32,116 bases of DNA, taken from the NCBI GenBank assembly GCA_016928315.1, contig JAFGKZ010000217.1, positions 1 through 32,116 on the forward strand, written 5' to 3'. Made by a program: the position numbers and the translations under genes. Shown here piece after piece: positions 11,984 through 22,279 of this stretch; positions within the stretch are counted from its first letter, which is position 1, and the number at the start of each line of letters is the position of its first letter. The notes beneath the pieces are model-generated. The model had not been told where the DNA came from and did no database searches. It worked only from the letters and a program-made list of their open reading frames with translations. The DNA is from Calditrichaceae bacterium. GTDB lineage: Bacteria; Calditrichota; Calditrichia; Calditrichales; Calditrichaceae.

Positions 11984-12156
11984 CGGTTTTTTCTAAAGAG
12001 GATACTATTTATAATTTTTTCATTTTTCTTTCCAATAATTAAGAAATAACACTTTACTTTTACAATATCTGGGAATAAATTCACAATAACAGAATTGAAT
12101 ATTATGTCGAGTTCACTGATGCCATGCTATTACGACTTGATGTTATATTCACATTG

Positions 12157-12172
12157 TGGCACAAAAATTGTA
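12157..12172 (+). promoter_or_regulatory. Candidate sigma-54 (-24/-12) promoter for the hydrogenase operon
   Basis: TGGCAC at 12157-12162, five A residues and TTGTA at 12168-12172 fit the sigma-54 consensus TGGCACrNNNNTTGCW with the correct 12-base distance from the GG to the G of the second element. The only important mismatch is T for C in the -12 GC. The predicted start would be near 12183, leaving a leader of about 23 bases before the hydB ATG at 12206, which has GGGGA at 12195-12199. Hydrogenase genes in several bacteria are known to be transcribed by RNA polymerase with sigma-54. The activator is not encoded in this window. Confidence 0.6.
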
Positions 12173-12205
12173 AAACAGGCATCAAACACTATGTGGGGAT
12201 TCCTT

Positions 12206-13270
12206 ATGAGTAAAGAATTTAATTCAAAATTAACGGATCTAAAACGCTACTTCTTCAATGAATCTGATGTCAGGAAATTTATAGATTTTCTTATGACAAA
12301 AGCAGAGGTAATTGCTCCCCAAACAAAAGGCGAGCAGTCTTTCGCTTACAATGTTGTAAAAAATAGTTCAGACGTGGCGCTTGAATATCCGCGTACCATG
12401 CAGCCTCTGAAGAAATATTTTTTACCGCCGGTAGAAACATTGCTTACTTTTAAGATGAGTTCAAATGAATTCAGCGAAGAAGTCATCGAGGCCAAAAAGC
12501 AGATTTTTTTTGGCATTCATTCTTATGAAATGAAGGGCATTCATTTGCTGGACTACTGTCTTGGAAAAGGAAAGCCCGAATCAAATTATCTAAAACGACG
12601 CGCAAATGCACTGATTATCGGCATCTCATATAAACCAGATAAATATCATTTTGCGACTTCTCTGGGGATCGATATTGAAGAAACAGAAGGATTTGCTTTG
12701 TTTTTTGAAAAAGTTACGGAAGGATATCTGGTATTTGTGGTAACGGATGAGGGGGCAGAGCTGATTAAAGATTTTAGCGGCGGTAAACCTATTGATGAGC
12801 AAGTTAATATTGAAGAATTACCACAGCAGGCTAAGATCAAATATCACTATAATCGTTTACCGCAGGTCTTCGAACATGTTTATAATTCCAGAGTATGGGA
12901 TCATTTTGCAGATAAATGTGTCGGATGTGGAACATGCAATTTATTATGTCCAACTTGCTACTGCTTTGACGTACGTGATGAAGTCGGATTGAATGCGGAT
13001 GATGGAAAGCGTCAGCGGTTTTGGGATGGTTGTATGTTAAATTCATTTGCTGAAGTTGCCGGAGGCGAGAATTTCAGGAATAAACTTGCTGCGCGTATGC
13101 GGCATCGTCTTTATAGAAAATTCAGCTACATTACAAAATCTTCGGGTGAATTACATTGCGTTGGTTGCGGCCGTTGTACAAGGTATTGTCCAGCCGATAT
13201 TAGTATTGTAGAAATTATTAATAGTCTAATCGAAGATTACAGCGCACAACAGAAGAAACAGGCTGTCTAG
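12206..13270 (+). CDS. hydB: Group 3b [NiFe] hydrogenase, beta (iron-sulfur) subunit
   Basis: This 354-aa subunit resembles the beta subunit of cytoplasmic sulfhydrogenases and carries electrons between the hydrogenase core and the flavin subunit. It has two C-terminal 4Fe-4S motifs: CVGCGTCNLLCPTC (Cys238, 241, 244, 248) and CVGCGRCTRYCP (Cys318, 321, 324, 328). The N-terminal 230 residues belong to the HydB/AsrA-type domain, with FFGIHSYEMKGIHLLDYC near 101-118. The frame is open from 12095, but I choose ATG 12206: it has GGGGA at a good distance, gives the usual N-terminus, and lies just downstream of the sigma-54-like promoter, which sits inside the longer open frame. It is the first gene of hydB-hydG-hydD-hydA. 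Confidence 0.92.
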   Translation: MSKEFNSKLTDLKRYFFNESDVRKFIDFLMTKAEVIAPQTKGEQSFAYNVVKNSSDVALEYPRTMQPLKKYFLPPVETLLTFKMSSNEFSEEVIEAKKQIFFGIHSYEMKGIHLLDYCLGKGKPESNYLKRRANALIIGISYKPDKYHFATSLGIDIEETEGFALFFEKVTEGYLVFVVTDEGAELIKDFSGGKPIDEQVNIEELPQQAKIKYHYNRLPQVFEHVYNSRVWDHFADKCVGCGTCNLLCPTCYCFDVRDEVGLNADDGKRQRFWDGCMLNSFAEVAGGENFRNKLAARMRHRLYRKFSYITKSSGELHCVGCGRCTRYCPADISIVEIINSLIEDYSAQQKKQAV

Positions 13271-13290
13271 CCCTGGGGTGAGGAAATAAT

Positions 13291-14130
13291 ATGTTAACAA
13301 ATACCACAGAAATGAAAGATTTATATTATCCGCTGATGTCGGATATTATTAAGGTTGAGCAATTAACGGCTACTGAAAAAAGGTTTGAAATTGCTCTGCC
13401 TGACAATCAGGTTTTAAATCATAAACCTGGCCAGTTTGTGGAAGTATCCCTGTTTGGTTTTGGCGAGGCTCCAATTTCAATCAGTTCTTCTCCGACCAAA
13501 ACGCCTGCGTTCGATTTAACCGTTCGGCGGACAGGAAAATTGACTGACAAGATGCATGAATTGGCGGTCGGAAGCAAACTAGGCATTAGAGGTCCGTTTG
13601 GCAATGGATTCGATGTGGATTTTATGAAGGGCAAAGATATGCTCTTCATTGCTGGCGGCATTGGGTTGGCGCCTCTTAAATCATTAATAGACTATACAAT
13701 TGATAAACGCAAAGATTTTGGCCGCATTATAATTGTGTATGGAACCAAACATCCTTCTGAGATACTTTTTTCCAATGAAATAGAAAAATGGAAAAATTTG
13801 AAGGATGTTGAATTTCACATGACGGTTGACCGGCCGGATGATAATTGGAAAGGCAACATAGGCGTTATTACAACGTTAATTCCACCACTGGAAATTAATG
13901 TGGAAAATACCATTGCCTCCATCGTTGGCCCTCCTATTATGTATAAATTTGTTTTAATGTCACTTAATAGTAAACGAATACCGGATGAAAATATTTACAT
14001 GTCACTTGAACGCAGAATGAAATGCGGGGTTGGTAAATGCGGTCATTGCCAGATCAATCATAGTTATGTATGTCAGGATGGTCCGGTCTATCATTATCCG
14101 AAAGCTAAAGAATTGGAGGAAGCGGTATGA
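13291..14130 (+). CDS. hydG: Group 3b [NiFe] hydrogenase, gamma subunit (FAD/NAD(P)-binding reductase)
   Basis: This 279-aa diaphorase subunit exchanges electrons between the hydrogenase and NAD(P)H. It has the ferredoxin-NADP reductase fold: an FAD-binding barrel (about 15-105, with PGQFVEVSLFG and PISISSSP), an NAD(P)-binding domain (about 110-225, with AGGIGLAPLKS at 121-131 and VYGTKHPSEILF) and a C-terminal [2Fe-2S] loop CGVGKCGHC (Cys245, 250, 253) completed by Cys261. The same architecture occurs in PyrK, but the position between hydB and hydD settles the identity. The spacing to hydB is 20 bases with a GAGG ribosome-binding site. The stop overlaps the hydD start (ATGA). Confidence 0.93.
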   Translation: MLTNTTEMKDLYYPLMSDIIKVEQLTATEKRFEIALPDNQVLNHKPGQFVEVSLFGFGEAPISISSSPTKTPAFDLTVRRTGKLTDKMHELAVGSKLGIRGPFGNGFDVDFMKGKDMLFIAGGIGLAPLKSLIDYTIDKRKDFGRIIIVYGTKHPSEILFSNEIEKWKNLKDVEFHMTVDRPDDNWKGNIGVITTLIPPLEINVENTIASIVGPPIMYKFVLMSLNSKRIPDENIYMSLERRMKCGVGKCGHCQINHSYVCQDGPVYHYPKAKELEEAV

Positions 14131-14903
14131 GCGCGCAGGCAGTTAAATCCAAACCTAAAGTAGCTTTCTTCGATTTTACTAGCTGCGAAGGTTGCCAGCT
14201 TAATAAATTGAATTTTGAAAATGAGTTGCTGGATATATTAGAATTGGTTGATATTGTTGAGTTCAGAGAGGCCATGGATGATAAAGCGGATGCGTATGAT
14301 ATTGCTTTTATTGAAGGCAGTATCAGTACGCCGACCTGTATTGAACGGATACATGATATCCGCCGTCGTTCCAAAGTATTGGTTGCCCTTGGTCAATGCG
14401 CCGTGACCGGAGGAATAAATGCTATGAAGAACTCCCATCCATCGGAATGGGTGCAGGAAACAGTTTACGGAAAGGATAAATATCTTTTTCCATCGATACC
14501 TGCCCAACCGGTGAGCGCCATTGTAAAAGTGGATTATGAAGTACGCGGCTGCCCGATGAGCGCGCCGGAGTATCTTCATGTCTTTAAATCGTTAGTTTTG
14601 GGCAGAAAGCCTGAACCGCCTGATTATGCAGTTTGCGTTGAGTGTAAACTTAAAGAGAATGAATGTGTACTGGAAAAAGGCATGTTTTGTCTCGGGCCAA
14701 TCACACGGGCTGGTTGTGATGCCTTGTGTCCTTCGAACGGACAGTATTGCACCGGTTGCCGCGGAATGGTATCGAATATTAATGAAAAGGGCGCTGTGGA
14801 TATGTTAAAGAAACATGGTTTTTCTACAGAAGAAGCGATTAAAAGAATGAAGTTGTTCAATACGAATGAGGTTGATAAACAAATAAGTTGGGGGAGAAAA
14901 TGA
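14127..14903 (+). CDS. hydD: Group 3b [NiFe] hydrogenase, delta (small) subunit
   Basis: This 258-aa small subunit holds the chain of three iron-sulfur clusters next to the [NiFe] site. The proximal cluster ligands are visible as FTSCEGCQLN (Cys20, Cys23), LGQCAVTGGIN and VRGCPMSAPEY. The C-terminal cysteine-rich part (CVECKLKENECVLEKGMFC, then TRAGCDALCPSNGQYCTGC) supplies the other clusters. There is no twin-arginine signal peptide, so the enzyme is cytoplasmic, as expected for group 3. It overlaps hydG by 4 bases at its start and hydA by 4 bases at its end. Confidence 0.95.
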   Translation: MSAQAVKSKPKVAFFDFTSCEGCQLNKLNFENELLDILELVDIVEFREAMDDKADAYDIAFIEGSISTPTCIERIHDIRRRSKVLVALGQCAVTGGINAMKNSHPSEWVQETVYGKDKYLFPSIPAQPVSAIVKVDYEVRGCPMSAPEYLHVFKSLVLGRKPEPPDYAVCVECKLKENECVLEKGMFCLGPITRAGCDALCPSNGQYCTGCRGMVSNINEKGAVDMLKKHGFSTEEAIKRMKLFNTNEVDKQISWGRK

Positions 14904-16204
14904 GCAAAGATCTGACTATTAATGTTCATCATATAACCCGGGTCGAAGGTCATGGTAATATCGTAGTGGATATGAAAAATGGCGCACTGAAAAAAGCACA
15001 ACTTGAGATTGTTGAAGCCCCCCGCTTTTTTGAAGCGATGTTGAAAGGCCGTAATTTCCATGAAGTAGCGATCATAACTTCCCGAATATGCGGAATCTGT
15101 TCATTGGGCCATCAGATGACTTCTCTAAAAGCTACGGAAGCTGCGTTAGGCCTGGAAATAAGCGAGCAGACGGAAATATTGAGAAAAATTCTGGTTAATG
15201 GTTCAACCTTTCAGAGTAATGTGCTGCATGCATTATTTTTAGCAACACCCGATTTTCTTGGCGTCGGTTCCGTATTTCCACTGGTTAATACACATAAAGA
15301 TGTTGTTTTAGCTGCTCTGCGCTTGAAACGTCTGGCTAACGAAATTGGCGAGATTGTAAGCGGCAGGGCGGTTCATCCAATCAGCTGTGTGCCCGGTGGT
15401 TTTACAAAATTGCCAAGCGAAAAAGAATTGGCTGCATTAAAAGAGAAAATCATCAAAGAAGGTCTGCCGGATGCCAATTTTGTAATTGATGTGGTCGCTT
15501 CGCTGGCAGATAAAATTCCGCAGTTCGAACGTGAAACAGAATATATCAGCGTTTATAACGATAAAGAATACGGCTTATACGACGGTGTGATCCGCTCTTC
15601 TGATACCGGTGATACGCCTGTGGAAAACTATCTTGACGTAACAAATGAATTTGTTGTTCCGCACTCTACCAGTAAGCATGCTAAGTTTAACCGCAGCTCC
15701 TATTTTGTCGGCGCATTAGCGCGGTTCAACAATAGTTATAATTTGCTTAAAAAAGAAGCTAAGGATGTTGCTGCAAAACTTGGATTATCTGCGCCGAATT
15801 TTAATCCGTACATGAACACAGTCGCTCAGGTAGTAGAAGTTGTGCATTGTGTTCTTGATACAATTAATCTGATTGATACGTTACTTGAAAAAGGTATAAA
15901 AAACGAGAAGCCGAATCAGGAACCGACAAAATATGGGCGTGGTATAGCCACCACCGAAGTTCCGAGAGGAATATTATTTCATGATTATACCTATAATCGG
16001 CAGGGAATGATTGAGACGGCAAACTGTATTATCCCAACAGGCCAGAATTTAGCAAATATTGATGATGATATGAAAAAATTGGTTCCTGAAATTATTGATG
16101 AAGGTAAAGAAAAAATTACCCATAAACTGGAAATGCTGGTACGGGCCTATGATCCTTGCATATCCTGTTCGGTGCACATGCTGGATGTTACATTTGAAGA
16201 ATAA
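14900..16204 (+). CDS. hydA: Group 3b [NiFe] hydrogenase, alpha (large, catalytic) subunit
   Basis: This 434-aa catalytic subunit carries the Ni-Fe(CN)2CO centre. The nickel ligands are all present: RICGICSLGH (Cys64, Cys67) near the N-terminus and DPCISCSVH (Cys420, Cys423, His426) at the C-terminus. Eight residues, MLDVTFEE, follow His426 and would be the peptide removed by the maturation protease after nickel insertion; that protease is the next gene. The RVEGHGN motif (residues 14-20) is the standard N-terminal large-subunit signature. I choose ATG 14900, which overlaps the hydD stop as ATGA and follows GGGGAG, over the in-frame TTG at 14888. The enzyme would couple H2 oxidation or evolution to NADP(H), possibly with sulfur reductase activity as in Pyrococcus. 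Confidence 0.95.
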   Translation: MSKDLTINVHHITRVEGHGNIVVDMKNGALKKAQLEIVEAPRFFEAMLKGRNFHEVAIITSRICGICSLGHQMTSLKATEAALGLEISEQTEILRKILVNGSTFQSNVLHALFLATPDFLGVGSVFPLVNTHKDVVLAALRLKRLANEIGEIVSGRAVHPISCVPGGFTKLPSEKELAALKEKIIKEGLPDANFVIDVVASLADKIPQFERETEYISVYNDKEYGLYDGVIRSSDTGDTPVENYLDVTNEFVVPHSTSKHAKFNRSSYFVGALARFNNSYNLLKKEAKDVAAKLGLSAPNFNPYMNTVAQVVEVVHCVLDTINLIDTLLEKGIKNEKPNQEPTKYGRGIATTEVPRGILFHDYTYNRQGMIETANCIIPTGQNLANIDDDMKKLVPEIIDEGKEKITHKLEMLVRAYDPCISCSVHMLDVTFEE

Positions 16205-16211
16205 GTGATTC

Positions 16212-16667
16212 ATGCTTAAAGTAATCAGTCTCGGAAACGAGCTGCGTGGTGATGATAGTGTAGGACTTGTGGTTCTAAATGAATTGCGAAGTATGGAGTT
16301 ACCGGCACCTTTAATGCTTATCGATGCGGGATCAGACGCTTTCATTGTGCTGGAACACTTGATGGCAAGCGATCCGATCCTTCTTATAGATTGTGCCCGG
16401 ATGGGCAGGCAGCCGGGAGAAGTGATAAAATTTAAAGTTAATGATTCAAATATAAAATCATTTGAAAAATCGATTTCGTTACATGGTTTCAGTTTTGCCG
16501 AAGTATTTAAAATGGCAAGACAATTTGGTTCTGTCCCAGATTGTTCAATTGTTGGGATTGAACCAAAATCTATAGAATTTGGACAAAAATTATCCGATGA
16601 AGTGAAGCAAAATCTTCCTTCAATCATAAAAATGGTTATCGAGGAGGCCAAACAATATGGCAACTAA
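16212..16667 (+). CDS. Hydrogenase maturation endopeptidase (HybD/HycI family)
   Basis: This 151-aa protease clips the C-terminal peptide from the hydrogenase large subunit. It begins with the family signature ISLGNELRGDDSVGL. The three nickel-sensing residues known from HybD (Glu16, Asp62, His93) correspond to Asp15, Asp60 (IDCARMG) and His91 (SLHGFSF). Asp replaces Glu at the first position, a conservative change common in this family. It lies 7 bases after hydA, so it is almost surely dedicated to the HydA of this operon, whose predicted C-terminal tail is MLDVTFEE. It overlaps the next gene by 11 bases. Confidence 0.92.
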   Translation: MLKVISLGNELRGDDSVGLVVLNELRSMELPAPLMLIDAGSDAFIVLEHLMASDPILLIDCARMGRQPGEVIKFKVNDSNIKSFEKSISLHGFSFAEVFKMARQFGSVPDCSIVGIEPKSIEFGQKLSDEVKQNLPSIIKMVIEEAKQYGN

Positions 16668-19204: not shown

Positions 19205-20380
19205 ATGAATAAAAAACGGGCAATTGTAATAATTATTGATGGCGTGGGGGTTGGCGAAATGCCTGATGCATCCAATTATGGCGATCAGGGTAGTCATACG
19301 CTGGCTAATATGGCCGCAGTTGTTGGTGGCTTGCATCTGCCCAATCTTGAAAAGATGGGATTGGGTAAAATTGCACCCATACAGGGACTCAATGGTTCTT
19401 TAAAAGCTTTAGCCAATTATGGTAAAATGGCGGAAAAATCGAAAGGTAAAGATTCGACAACCGGGCATTGGGAATTGGCTGGATTAATTGTCAACCATCC
19501 TTTTCCCACATATCCTGAAGGATTTCCAAAAGAAGTAATCAGTCAGTTTGAGCGGAAAATAGGCCGTGAGACACTAGGGAATAAACCAGCATCGGGCACA
19601 GAAATTATTAAAGAATTAGGTGAAGAACATATTAAAACAGGAAAACCAATCGTATACACATCGGCGGACTCAGTTTTTCAGATTGCTGCACACGAAGAAG
19701 TAATTCCCCTGAATGAATTGTATGATATGTGTGAGATTGCCCGGAAAATGCTGACCGGTAAGCATGCTGTTGCCCGCGTAATTGCAAGACCCTTTATTGG
19801 AAATACCGCAAGTGATTTCAGCCGGACTAAATACAGGAAAGATTTTTCCTTGAAACCTTTTGGTAAAATAATGCATCAAATATTTCAGGATAATGAAATA
19901 GCAACTGTCGCGATTGGTAAAATAAATGATTTATATGCTTTCACCGGAATCACAAAAAGTACACATACAAAAACTAATACGGAAGGGATGTCTGCTCTTT
20001 TAGAAGAATTGGATGAAACTGAATCCGGATTTATTATGGCCAATCTGGTGGATTTTGATATGCTCTGGGGACATCGAAACGATCCGACCGGGTTTTATGA
20101 GGGGCTTAAGGCGTTTGATCAATGGCTGCCGCTTTTTATTGAGAAATTAAACGAAAATGATTTACTTATAATCACAGCAGATCATGGCAATGACCCGACT
20201 ACCATAAGTACCGATCATTCAAGAGAGTATGTCCCCGTATTGGCTTATGGTCCAGGATTGAAATCAGATCAGAATATTGGCACGAGGGATACTTTTGCTG
20301 ATCTTCAGGCGACTTTGGCCGAATATTTCACTGTACCGTCAACGGGAGCCGGAAAGAGTTTTTTAAATCTGCTTAATTAG
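19205..20380 (+). CDS. deoB: Phosphopentomutase
   Basis: This 391-aa member of the alkaline phosphatase superfamily interconverts (deoxy)ribose 1-phosphate and 5-phosphate during nucleoside breakdown or salvage, using two Mn ions. The first metal motif is IIDGVGVGEMPDA (Asp12), the phosphorylated threonine is in KDSTTGHWE (Thr85, matching the numbering of the Bacillus cereus enzyme), and the C-terminal metal site is TADHGNDPTT followed by STDHSREYVP. The length is typical. It starts the operon with two microcompartment vertex genes 15 bases downstream. This suggests sugar-phosphate metabolism as the context for those genes, since product deoxyribose 5-phosphate would feed an aldolase (DeoC) that is not in this window. 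Confidence 0.96.
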   Translation: MNKKRAIVIIIDGVGVGEMPDASNYGDQGSHTLANMAAVVGGLHLPNLEKMGLGKIAPIQGLNGSLKALANYGKMAEKSKGKDSTTGHWELAGLIVNHPFPTYPEGFPKEVISQFERKIGRETLGNKPASGTEIIKELGEEHIKTGKPIVYTSADSVFQIAAHEEVIPLNELYDMCEIARKMLTGKHAVARVIARPFIGNTASDFSRTKYRKDFSLKPFGKIMHQIFQDNEIATVAIGKINDLYAFTGITKSTHTKTNTEGMSALLEELDETESGFIMANLVDFDMLWGHRNDPTGFYEGLKAFDQWLPLFIEKLNENDLLIITADHGNDPTTISTDHSREYVPVLAYGPGLKSDQNIGTRDTFADLQATLAEYFTVPSTGAGKSFLNLLN

Positions 20381-20395
20381 ATAAAGGATCAAATT

Positions 20396-20668
20396 TTGCT
20401 TTTAGGAAAAGTAATAGGAACCGTTTGGGCAACACGCAAGGATGAAAAGTTAACCGGCTTGAAACTCTTGCTTGTTCGTCACGTTGAACTGGATTATAGC
20501 ATGAAAAAATCCTATGTGGTGGCGGCGGATACGGTTGGCGCAGGCATTGGCGAAATCGTATTGTTAACAACCGGCAGTTCTGCCCGCCAATCCAAATTAA
20601 CGGAAGGTAAACCGGTTGATGCTGTGGTTTCCGGGATTATAGATAAATTAGATTTGGCAGATAACTAA
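20396..20668 (+). CDS. EutN/CcmL-family microcompartment vertex protein, copy 1
   Basis: This 90-aa protein of the EutN/CcmL (BMV) family forms the pentamers that cap the vertices of bacterial microcompartment shells. The family signature is plain: GKVIGTVWATRKDEKLTGLK at the N-terminus (residues 4-23) and AADTVGAGIGEIVLLTTGSSAR in the middle (about 44-65), with a C-terminal VVSGIIDKLD strand. The start is TTG at 20396 with AAAGGA upstream; no ATG is available before the conserved GKVIGTVW. It sits 15 bases after deoB and 1 base before a second copy. No BMC-H or BMC-T shell-hexamer gene is in the window. Confidence 0.93.
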   Translation: MLLGKVIGTVWATRKDEKLTGLKLLLVRHVELDYSMKKSYVVAADTVGAGIGEIVLLTTGSSARQSKLTEGKPVDAVVSGIIDKLDLADN

Positions 20669-20669
20669 C

Positions 20670-20939
20670 ATGAATTTAGCGCGCGTAATCGGGACAGTTT
20701 GGGCTACCCGTAAAGACCCGAATCTTGAAAACTTAAAAATGCAGATTTTGCAGCCGATTACGGTTAGCGAAAAAGATATAGGGGCACCAATAATTGCCGT
20801 TGATACAGTTGGCGCAGGCGCAGGCGAAACGGTTTTCTATGTTACTGCTTATGAAGCTGTTATTCCTTTAGAAAACAAACCAGCCTTATGCGACGCCTCG
20901 ATTGTGGGCATTGTAGATCGAATTGAAATGAGAGAATGA
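20670..20939 (+). CDS. EutN/CcmL-family microcompartment vertex protein, copy 2
   Basis: This 89-aa paralogue of the preceding gene carries ARVIGTVWATRKDPNLENLK (residues 4-23) and AVDTVGAGAGETVFYVT. The two proteins differ at many positions outside the shared motifs, so this is an old duplication rather than a recent one. Many microcompartment operons carry two or three vertex genes, but next to hexamer genes, which are missing here. The start is ATG, 1 base after the first copy, and the next gene starts 4 bases downstream. The pair is thus in the middle of a tight operon. Confidence 0.93.
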   Translation: MNLARVIGTVWATRKDPNLENLKMQILQPITVSEKDIGAPIIAVDTVGAGAGETVFYVTAYEAVIPLENKPALCDASIVGIVDRIEMRE

Positions 20940-20943
20940 GTTT

Positions 20944-21258
20944 ATGACACTCTGGAACAATATTAAAAAAGGTCTCATGGAAGGGATTCATACAGCAACA
21001 GATAAAACATCAGAGTACACAAAAATTGGCAGAATAAAAATTGATATATTAGGCGTAAAAAAAGAGATTGAAGAAAAGCTGCTCGAACTTGGCGGACGCT
21101 TGTATGATAAAATTGTTGAAAAAGATCAATATGATATTCAAAACGATAAATACATAATGCAGCTCATTGAGCAAGTTAAAGAGCTGGAAAATGAATTAAA
21201 AAAATATAGTCAGGAATTAAATAGAATTAAAATTGATGATGGCATCGATCTGGATTGA
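20944..21258 (+). CDS. Small coiled-coil protein of unknown function
   Basis: This is a 104-aa hypothetical protein that I do not recognise. The first 30 residues are amphipathic (TLWNNIKKGLMEGIHTATDK). Residues 30-95 are strongly charged and predicted helical, with heptad-like patterns (ILGVKKEIEEKLLELGGRLYDKIV and MQLIEQVKELENELKKY), so a coiled coil is likely. There is no signal peptide or membrane helix. It sits between the second vertex gene (4 bases) and the sigma-factor gene (113 bases). The ILGVKKEIEEKLLELGGRLYD stretch is reminiscent of small coiled-coil proteins often found near division or envelope genes, but I cannot assign it. Confidence 0.7.
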   Translation: MTLWNNIKKGLMEGIHTATDKTSEYTKIGRIKIDILGVKKEIEEKLLELGGRLYDKIVEKDQYDIQNDKYIMQLIEQVKELENELKKYSQELNRIKIDDGIDLD

Positions 21259-21371: not shown

Positions 21372-22217
21372 GTGAGTGATTTTTTTATTAGTAAAAATCA
21401 ATCGTTAGAGAATTATTTACGAGAAATCGGCGAAGTCAGACTTTTAACCCCTGAAGAAGAAATTGAATTAGCCCAAAAAATTAAACAAAATGATCAAAAA
21501 GCTTTAAAAAGACTGGTAAGCGCAAATTTACGATTTGTGGTGAGCGTAGCAAAATCATACCAAAACTATGGTCTTTCGTTAGAAGATTTGATTAATGAAG
21601 GTAATTTGGGTTTAATGAAAGCTGCATATCGTTTTGATGAAACCCGTGGATTTAAATTTATTTCCTATGCGGTGTGGTGGATTAAACAATCCATTTTACA
21701 GGCCATTGCCGAGCAGTCCAGGCTGGTTCGGCTTCCGCTAAACAGAGTGGGAACATTAACAAAGATTGGTAAAGTTTATAGTATGCTTGAGCAGGAATTT
21801 GAACGCGAACCTACGCCGGAAGAAATTGCCAGTGTGCTGGAAGTGGATAGCGGCGATATCACGGATACTATTAAAATGGCAACGCGATCTGTATCTATGG
21901 ATTCGCCTTTGCAGAAGAACAGCGACAGCCGATTAATTGATATTATACAAAATCAGCAGGACCCCGAACCGGATTCCGAAGTTATGGGCGAATCGCTCAA
22001 AGAAGAAGTCAATCATATCCTTTCCACTTTAACGGCCCGTGAAGCGCGCATTTTAAAACTATATTTCGGTTTGGATGGAGAAAAACCGCATACGTTAGAA
22101 GAAATTGGCGTAAAATTTAAACTTACCAGAGAAAGAGTGCGGCAAATTAAAGAAAAAGCCTTACGTAGATTACGTCATAGTTCCAGAAGTAAAGTATTAA
22201 GGTACTATTTAGGTTAA
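21372..22217 (+). CDS. rpoD: Primary-type sigma-70 family RNA polymerase sigma factor
   Basis: This 281-aa sigma factor has regions 1.2 ([22 protein letters not shown]), 2 ([53 protein letters not shown]), 3 ([26 protein letters not shown]) and 4 ([45 protein letters not shown]). Region 1.1 and the non-conserved insert of Proteobacterial RpoD are lacking. The size and the C-terminal [11 protein letters not shown] closely resemble the Bacteroidota primary sigma factor. It could be that housekeeping factor, or a closely related alternative (RpoS-like) one; region 2 looks primary-type. The GTG start follows GAGGT at a reasonable distance. A strong terminator follows at 22247. Confidence 0.93.
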
Positions 22218-22246: not shown

Positions 22247-22279
22247 AAACTCCGCTTGATCGCGGAGTTTTTTTTTTAT
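22247..22279 (+). terminator. Strong intrinsic terminator after the sigma-factor gene
   Basis: AAACTCCGC (22247-22255) pairs perfectly with GCGGAGTTT (22262-22270) across the 6-base loop TTGATC, and the stem runs straight into a run of T (to about 22277). It closes the deoB to sigma-factor operon. Confidence 0.9.

What the first reader, a model, noticed from the sequence alone, without database searches (positions are those of the whole stretch)
20396..21258. Two orphan microcompartment vertex genes in a deoB operon, with no shell hexamer nearby
Two tandem EutN/CcmL-family genes (each with the GxVIGTVWATRKD and DTVGAGxGE signatures) lie directly behind phosphopentomutase and ahead of a small coiled-coil gene and a sigma factor. 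Shells need many hexamer (BMC-H/T) subunits and only 12 vertices, yet no hexamer gene is seen within 11 kb downstream or 20 kb upstream. Known sugar-phosphate and Planctomycetes-type compartments handle deoxyribose phosphate, so the deoB link is suggestive. The pair may be a satellite of a compartment locus elsewhere, or vertex proteins with a shell-free role.
Basis: partly seen in the sequence, partly recalled or inferred. Interest (0 to 1): 0.62.

Follow-up and report, generated by a model that had tools for sequence, protein, structure and literature searches.

The report
Scattered vertex genes of deoxyribose microcompartment
Two genes for the corner pieces of a bacterial protein organelle sit behind a DNA-sugar enzyme gene, far from the rest of the shell genes; comparison across related bacteria indicates that the scattered organelle breaks down deoxyribose from DNA, a function that had not been assigned to this kind of scattered compartment in the papers I could read.

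Summary
Window 20396-20668 and 20670-20939 encode two BMC-P (EutN/CcmL) proteins directly behind deoB, with no hexamer gene in the window. They are not orphans. The same genome (phylum Calditrichota) carries BMC-H, BMC-T, an aldehyde dehydrogenase with an encapsulation-peptide-like N-terminus, Pta and PduS on another contig that has no vertex gene. Two further single-EutN satellites exist; the four EutN genes are four paralogue classes (A-D). In 30 of 31 EutN-bearing genomes BMC-H is also present. The class-C vertex gene, at a contig edge here, is followed in 14 of 14 relatives by deoC, and in 10 also by deoA. That DeoC carries an encapsulation-peptide-like N-terminus; DeoC from genomes without a compartment mostly does not. 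The deoB-EutN-EutN-sigma string recurs in Ignavibacteria and related lineages, where DeoC is usually tagged too and BMC-H is always present. Best reading: a dispersed (FRAG/MIC-like) microcompartment that degrades deoxyribose 5-phosphate, working like SPU compartments. A shell-free role is disfavoured. New here: a candidate signature enzyme (DeoC) for a type published as having none, and the conserved deoB link. No experiment was done, and deoC itself is missing from this draft genome.

The parts
19205..20380 (+). deoB, phosphopentomutase (deoxyribose 1-P to deoxyribose 5-P)
   Evidence: TIGR01696 487 bits (cut-off 341), PRK05362 528 bits; only copy in the genome; directly upstream of the EutN pair in all eight family genomes whose pair lies at this locus (G000, G001-G003, G005, G006, G008, G009) and in G024
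20383..20388 (+). AAAGGA, likely ribosome-binding site of EutN-A, 7 nt before TTG 20396
   Evidence: sequence
20396..20668 (+). EutN-A, BMC-P vertex protein, paralogue class A
   Evidence: PF03319 106.5 bits; best PDB 5v74 E 5.5e-23; class A in tree
20670..20939 (+). EutN-B, BMC-P vertex protein, paralogue class B
   Evidence: PF03319 92.3 bits; best PDB 5v74 E 1.4e-11; class B in tree; 1 bp after EutN-A stop
20944..21258 (+). cc104, small coiled-coil-like protein of unknown function; belongs to the deoB-sigma string, not to the compartment
   Evidence: no Pfam/NCBIfam match; next to deoB also in BMC-less genomes G026, G029, G034, G035, G039
21372..22217 (+). RpoD-like (probably primary) sigma factor without region 1.1; housekeeping neighbour
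   Evidence: Sigma70 r1.2-r4, best NCBIfam RpoD, 94-98% identical across the order
22247..22270 (+). terminator-like hairpin with T run, the only one downstream of deoB; suggests one transcription unit deoB to sigma
   Evidence: 2 found against 3.3 expected in shuffles, so weak by itself

Best explanation
The pair are two of four vertex (BMC-P) paralogues of one bacterial microcompartment whose genes are dispersed over the chromosome. The main operon (contig C203: BMC-H with a C-terminal extension, ParA-like ATPase, Pta, BMC-H, aldehyde dehydrogenase, PduS, BMC-T) has no vertex gene; vertices come from this locus (A, B), from contig C23 (C) and from contig C290 (D). The compartment most likely processes deoxyribose from DNA. 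Proposed steps: DeoA releases deoxyribose 1-P; DeoB, from the same operon as vertices A and B and probably cytosolic, makes deoxyribose 5-P; this enters the shell; an encapsulated DeoC, whose gene follows vertex gene C in relatives, cleaves it to glyceraldehyde 3-P and acetaldehyde; the encapsulated aldehyde dehydrogenase turns acetaldehyde into acetyl-CoA and Pta makes acetyl-P. The shell would retain acetaldehyde. Shown by sequence: gene families, gene order, co-occurrence, encapsulation-peptide-like termini. Inferred: encapsulation, substrate, direction of flux, co-transcription. In this draft genome deoC and deoA themselves are not seen and are assumed to lie beyond the edge of C23.
For: Own genome: four BMC domains, all on C203 with AldDh, Pta, PduS, ParA and no EutN; four EutN genes at three other places. 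Co-occurrence in 60 genomes: EutN and BMC both present in 30, both absent in 28, discordant in 2 (Fisher p 1e-14, relatedness ignored). In G005, the one EutN-only genome, the AldDh of the main operon is missing too, so an assembly gap is likely. In a single-contig relative (G004, 4.98 Mb) the vertex triplet, vertex D and the main operon lie at 2.81, 2.58 and 0.39 Mb. In G024 (another family) PduS and BMC-T sit beside EutN-D, ACT and DUF711. Classes A, B and C have orthologues in compact loci of class relatives that hold BMC-H, AldDh, BMC-T and a RpiB-DeoC fusion. EutN-C is followed by deoC in 14 of 14 relatives and by deoA in 10. All 19 DeoC of the dispersed type have the EP-like helix (e.g. 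MSSITPEVIERIISQVIAE), against 1 of 15 DeoC from BMC-less genomes or second copies, and 14% of background proteins; AldDh 15 of 15. deoB lies upstream on the same strand in 32 of the 80 best EutN-A loci, 24 of them also with the sigma gene, mostly Ignavibacteria and related MAGs; 28 of 28 genomes examined from that set have BMC-H, and 20 of 24 DeoC with intact N-terminus there match the strict EP pattern.
Against: deoC and deoA were not found in this genome (87% complete; C23 ends just past EutN-C), so the key enzyme rests on relatives. The six genomes of sister family f2 keep EutN-A/B and tagged DeoC but have no deoB. In the Caldithrix-like genera deoB and the vertex triplet are apart. DeoB shows no EP (2 of 7, near background). 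The EP pattern was defined after seeing the sequences, and related genomes are not independent. No test of assembly, encapsulation or activity.
Confidence: 0.72

Rival explanations
1. Plain satellite with an incidental deoB neighbour: the pair caps the compartment encoded on C203, but its place behind deoB is a historical accident and the compartment's substrate is some other aldehyde source.
For: f2 genomes have the EutN pair beside cc104-sigma with no deoB anywhere. deoB-cc104 is a neighbourhood also found in BMC-less genomes. Published annotation of the Caldithrix abyssi locus found no signature enzyme (PMC4207490).
Against: A second vertex gene of the same compartment sits beside deoC(-deoA) in 14 of 14 relatives, with an EP-like tag on DeoC. 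The deoB-EutN-EutN link is seen in distant lineages in 32 loci. Orthologous vertices occur in RpiB-DeoC loci.
Confidence: 0.2
2. The EutN proteins have a shell-free role (for instance pentamers acting on DeoB or on the sigma factor).
For: No hexamer gene near the pair; vertex genes are in a housekeeping-type string; G005 has four EutN and no BMC hit.
Against: EutN and BMC-H co-occur almost perfectly; the G005 main operon's AldDh is missing too; BMC-less genomes keep deoB-cc104 but have no EutN.
Confidence: 0.04
3. Decaying remnants of a former compartment locus.
For: Scattering of shell genes could reflect breakdown; the main operon of this genome lacks the EutJ-like gene of relatives and has a MazEF-like pair in its place.
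Against: All four EutN and four BMC domains are intact and conserved over many genera in the same places; EutN-A is 71-88% identical across the order.
Confidence: 0.03

Closest known systems
FRAG BMCs (Sutter et al. 2021, PMC8217296)
   Same: Shell genes spread over several genomic places, a BMC-P triplet, found in Ignavibacteriae and closely related phyla; an AldDh is sometimes near
   Different: The paper lists FRAG1-7 as lacking an obvious signature enzyme; here an EP-tagged DeoC and deoB/deoA linkage give one. There is a fourth vertex class (D). Membership by the paper's shell-protein HMM groups could not be tested.
MIC locus of Caldithrix abyssi (Axen et al. 2014, PMC4207490)
   Same: AldDh, Pta-type phosphotransacylase, PduS and shell genes in one main locus, as on C203
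   Different: The paper calls it a metabolosome with incomplete core for want of a signature enzyme; the vertex satellites and tagged DeoC are not described in the passages read
SPU (sugar phosphate utilisation) BMCs
   Same: DeoC plus CoA-acylating aldehyde dehydrogenase chemistry; vertex classes A, B, C orthologous to those of RpiB-DeoC loci of class relatives
   Different: DeoC stands alone with its own EP-like helix instead of beside or fused to RpiB; Pta instead of PduL; genes dispersed; deoB next to vertices
HO BMC of Haliangium ochraceum
   Same: Best solved-structure match of both proteins is 5v74 (the HO shell, from memory); the 2021 catalogue notes that some HO genomes have a pfam01791 aldolase elsewhere with an EP-like N-terminus
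   Different: Different phylum and locus layout; here the tagged DeoC is consistently beside a vertex gene
beta-carboxysome satellite loci (CcmK3/K4 etc.)
   Same: Shell genes kept away from the main locus, perhaps for separate regulation
   Different: There hexamers are relocated; here all vertices are, and next to pathway genes

Membership tests
BMC-P (EutN/CcmL) vertex proteins | PF03319 domain over the full length | tested here: met
   106.5 and 92.3 bits, positions 1-83 of the 83-position model
BMC-P (EutN/CcmL) vertex proteins | Pentamer that caps a shell vertex | not testable with these tools
   Only sequence similarity to solved vertex proteins such as 5v74 and 4i7a
BMC satellite locus (Axen 2014 / Sutter 2021 definitions) | Only PF03319 or only PF00936 genes, contiguous, with other shell genes elsewhere in the genome | tested here: met
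   Only PF03319 here; PF00936 only on C203. Strictly no locus of this genome has both domains, so there is no 'main locus' in the 2021 sense
FRAG BMC | Shell genes dispersed over several loci | tested here: met
   C203, C16, C23, C290; up to 2.4 Mb apart in the single-contig relative G004
FRAG BMC | BMC-P triplet | tested here: met
   Classes A, B, C (plus D) in the tree
FRAG BMC | Shell proteins in the published FRAG HMM groups | not testable with these tools
   Supplementary HMMs not held
SPU BMC | DeoC-type aldolase (pfam01791) with the compartment | tested here: inconclusive
   Absent from this draft genome but beside EutN-C with EP-like tag in 14 of 14 relatives
SPU BMC | RpiB (pfam02502) in the locus | tested here: inconclusive
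   RpiB is fused to DeoC in class relatives, not beside deoC in the dispersed type as far as neighbours were read; rpiB was not searched genome-wide
SPU BMC | CoA-acylating AldDh with phosphotransacylase | tested here: met
   AldDh PRK15398 678 bits, Pta PF01515 340 bits; the phosphotransacylase is Pta-type, not PduL

The most novel reading that the evidence does not exclude
The dispersed microcompartments of Calditrichota and Ignavibacteria, published as lacking a signature enzyme, are DNA-scavenging deoxyribose 5-phosphate metabolosomes: encapsulated DeoC, AldDh and an EP-tagged ACT-domain protein (a cargo class I did not find described), four dedicated vertex paralogues in Calditrichota, vertices A/B made from a deoB-to-primary-sigma transcription unit so that vertex supply follows housekeeping transcription, and a ParA ATPase with a winged-helix-like BMC-H extension that positions the compartment on the nucleoid.
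Probability: 0.3. Interest if true: 0.7.

Novelty: new variant of a known kind. Interest (0 to 1): 0.56.

Why it matters
The 2021 catalogue of microcompartments left the function of FRAG compartments open and expected it to be revealed by environmental correlation. If the dispersed compartments of Calditrichota and Ignavibacteria are of that kind, a growth or packaging test (thymidine or DNA as substrate, with tagged DeoC) could assign it directly. It would also show that a complete organelle can be kept in working order over long evolutionary time with its vertex, cargo and facet genes at separate chromosomal sites.

Tried and rejected
Plasmid records gave only distant EutN hits below 60% identity. 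I first read the EutN pair as inserted between deoB and cc104, because deoB-cc104 is contiguous in BMC-less genomes; the same deoB-EutN-EutN-sigma order in Ignavibacteria makes later loss or relocation at least as likely, so polarity is left open. The sigma factor as a compartment regulator: rejected, it is 94-98% conserved across the order. cc104 as a compartment part: rejected, it stays next to deoB in genomes without a compartment. DeoB as cargo: no EP signal above background. G005 as a hexamer-free EutN genome: its main-operon AldDh is missing too, so a missing contig is likelier. Promoter matches in the region are at chance level. Structure prediction was not run: the sequence match to solved BMC-P already settles the fold and a monomer model would not test pentamers.

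Full report
OBSERVATION. Two complete EutN/CcmL (BMC-P) genes lie at 20396-20668 and 20670-20939 on the + strand, 15 bp behind deoB (19205-20380) and followed 4 bp later by a 104-aa coiled-coil-like gene (20944-21258) and then an RpoD-like sigma gene (21372-22217). Pfam scores are 106.5 and 92.3 bits against a cut-off of 25. Both match solved vertex proteins over their whole length, best 5v74, which I recall as the Haliangium ochraceum shell. The only terminator-like hairpin after deoB is at 22247-22270, behind the sigma gene, so deoB to sigma may be one transcription unit; this is inference.

THE REST OF THE SHELL. A search of the whole genome (291 contigs, 87% complete) found four BMC domains, all on contig C203, and four EutN genes: the pair, one at the very end of contig C23 and one on C290. 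The C203 operon is: BMC-H with a C-terminal extension, ParA-like ATPase, a 98-aa protein, Pta, BMC-H, aldehyde dehydrogenase (PRK15398, 678 bits), PduS-like protein, double BMC-T. It has no vertex gene. So the pair is one of three vertex satellites of a dispersed compartment.

CONSERVATION AND CO-OCCURRENCE. In 60 genomes EutN and BMC occur together in 30, are both absent in 28 and disagree in two. One of the two, G005, also lacks the operon's aldehyde dehydrogenase, which points to a missing contig. In the single-contig relative G004 (4.98 Mb) main operon, deoB, vertex D, vertex triplet, deoC and deoA are at about 0.39, 1.41, 2.58, 2.81, 3.83 and 4.31 Mb. The string deoB-EutN-A-EutN-B-cc104-sigma is present in eight genera of the family, counting this one, and in G024 of another family. 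Sister family f2 has EutN-A-EutN-B-cc104-sigma, behind a patatin-like gene where that was read, and no deoB at all. deoB and cc104 are neighbours also in genomes with no compartment, so cc104 and sigma are not compartment genes.

FOUR VERTEX CLASSES. A maximum-likelihood tree of 96 EutN proteins separates classes A, B, C and D (short alignment, some deep forks weak). A, B and C have counterparts in compact loci of class relatives, which hold BMC-H, AldDh, BMC-T and a RpiB-DeoC fusion; DeoC and RpiB are the two enzymes shared by all SPU compartments (PMC8217296). D is found only where its neighbour, an ACT-domain protein with an EP-like N-terminus, is found.

THE MISSING ENZYME. In this genome contig C23 ends 76 bases beyond the EutN-C gene, and deoC and deoA were not found. 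In 14 of 14 relatives with that satellite, EutN-C is followed on the same strand by deoC, and in 10 of them by deoA. All these DeoC carry about 60 extra N-terminal residues beginning with an amphipathic helix such as MSSITPEVIERIISQVIAE, also in the Caldithrix-like genomes where deoC stands elsewhere. With a strict pattern, 19 of 19 DeoC of dispersed-type genomes match, against 1 of 15 from BMC-less genomes or second copies and 14% of background proteins; AldDh 15 of 15; ACT protein 18 of 18; DeoB 2 of 7. G006 is an internal control: its DeoC beside EutN-C has the helix, its second DeoC does not. The pattern was made after seeing sequences and the genomes are related, so the counts are descriptive.

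BEYOND THE PHYLUM. The 80 best EutN-A loci in 84,980 species genomes include 32 with deoB upstream on the same strand, 22 to 2,086 bp away, and 24 of these also have the sigma gene; most are Ignavibacteria or MAGs filed near them, often with a VapBC-like pair between deoB and EutN-A. All 28 genomes examined from this set have BMC-H. 25 have deoC; of 24 with an intact N-terminus 20 match the strict EP pattern. In several of them deoC is 8 to 14 kb from the BMC-H genes.

LITERATURE. Axen et al. 2014 describe the Caldithrix abyssi locus as AldDh, Pta and PduS without an apparent signature enzyme (PMC4207490). Sutter et al. 2021 define FRAG compartments as fragmented over up to six places with a BMC-P triplet, in Ignavibacteriae and close phyla, list FRAG1-7 among types with no obvious signature enzyme, and note EP-like pfam01791 enzymes for some HO genomes only (PMC8217296). 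Searches for deoxyribose together with microcompartments found no paper that assigns DeoC to the fragmented type; preprints and most subscription papers are not held.

CONCLUSION. The pair is a vertex satellite of a dispersed microcompartment, most likely one that degrades deoxyribose 5-phosphate. Shown: families, gene order, co-occurrence, EP-like tags in relatives. Inferred: packaging, substrate, flux, co-transcription, and the presence of deoC in this genome. The kind of system is known; the function of this dispersed variant and the conserved deoB link appear to be new.

Noticed in passing
L009 12060-13402 (contig C203): A BMC-H protein with a C-terminal winged-helix-like extension (weak MarR_2 match) lies directly beside a ParA-like ATPase, conserved in the main operon of the order. 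It could tether and position the compartment on the nucleoid, like McdA-type systems.
   Followed up: partly
L093 6434-8631 (contig C290): EutN-D, ACT-domain protein with EP-like N-terminus, and DUF711 form a fixed trio found only in dispersed-type genomes; the ACT protein may be an unusual cargo or regulator.
   Followed up: partly
L009 16754-17334: A MazEF-like toxin-antitoxin pair sits in the main shell operon where relatives have an EutJ-like gene; no EutJ match was found in the fetched stretches of this genome.
   Followed up: partly
L073 804-2156 and f2 genomes: An archaeal-type GlmM homologue (TIGR03990) precedes EutN-C in many family members and in genus g13; it might supply phosphopentomutase activity in deoB-less f2 genomes.
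   Followed up: no
L272, L278, L285, L293 (between deoB and EutN-A): VapBC-like (AbrB-type and PIN-type) genes are wedged between deoB and EutN-A in many Ignavibacteria.
   Followed up: no
window 12095-16667: Looks like a soluble NiFe-hydrogenase operon (iron-sulfur, NAD/FAD, small and large subunits, maturation protease), judged by eye only.
   Followed up: no
G026:C106:4038-4673: A genome with no EutN or BMC hit (80% complete) still encodes a RpiB-DeoC fusion, either a compartment lost or one in an assembly gap.
   Followed up: no
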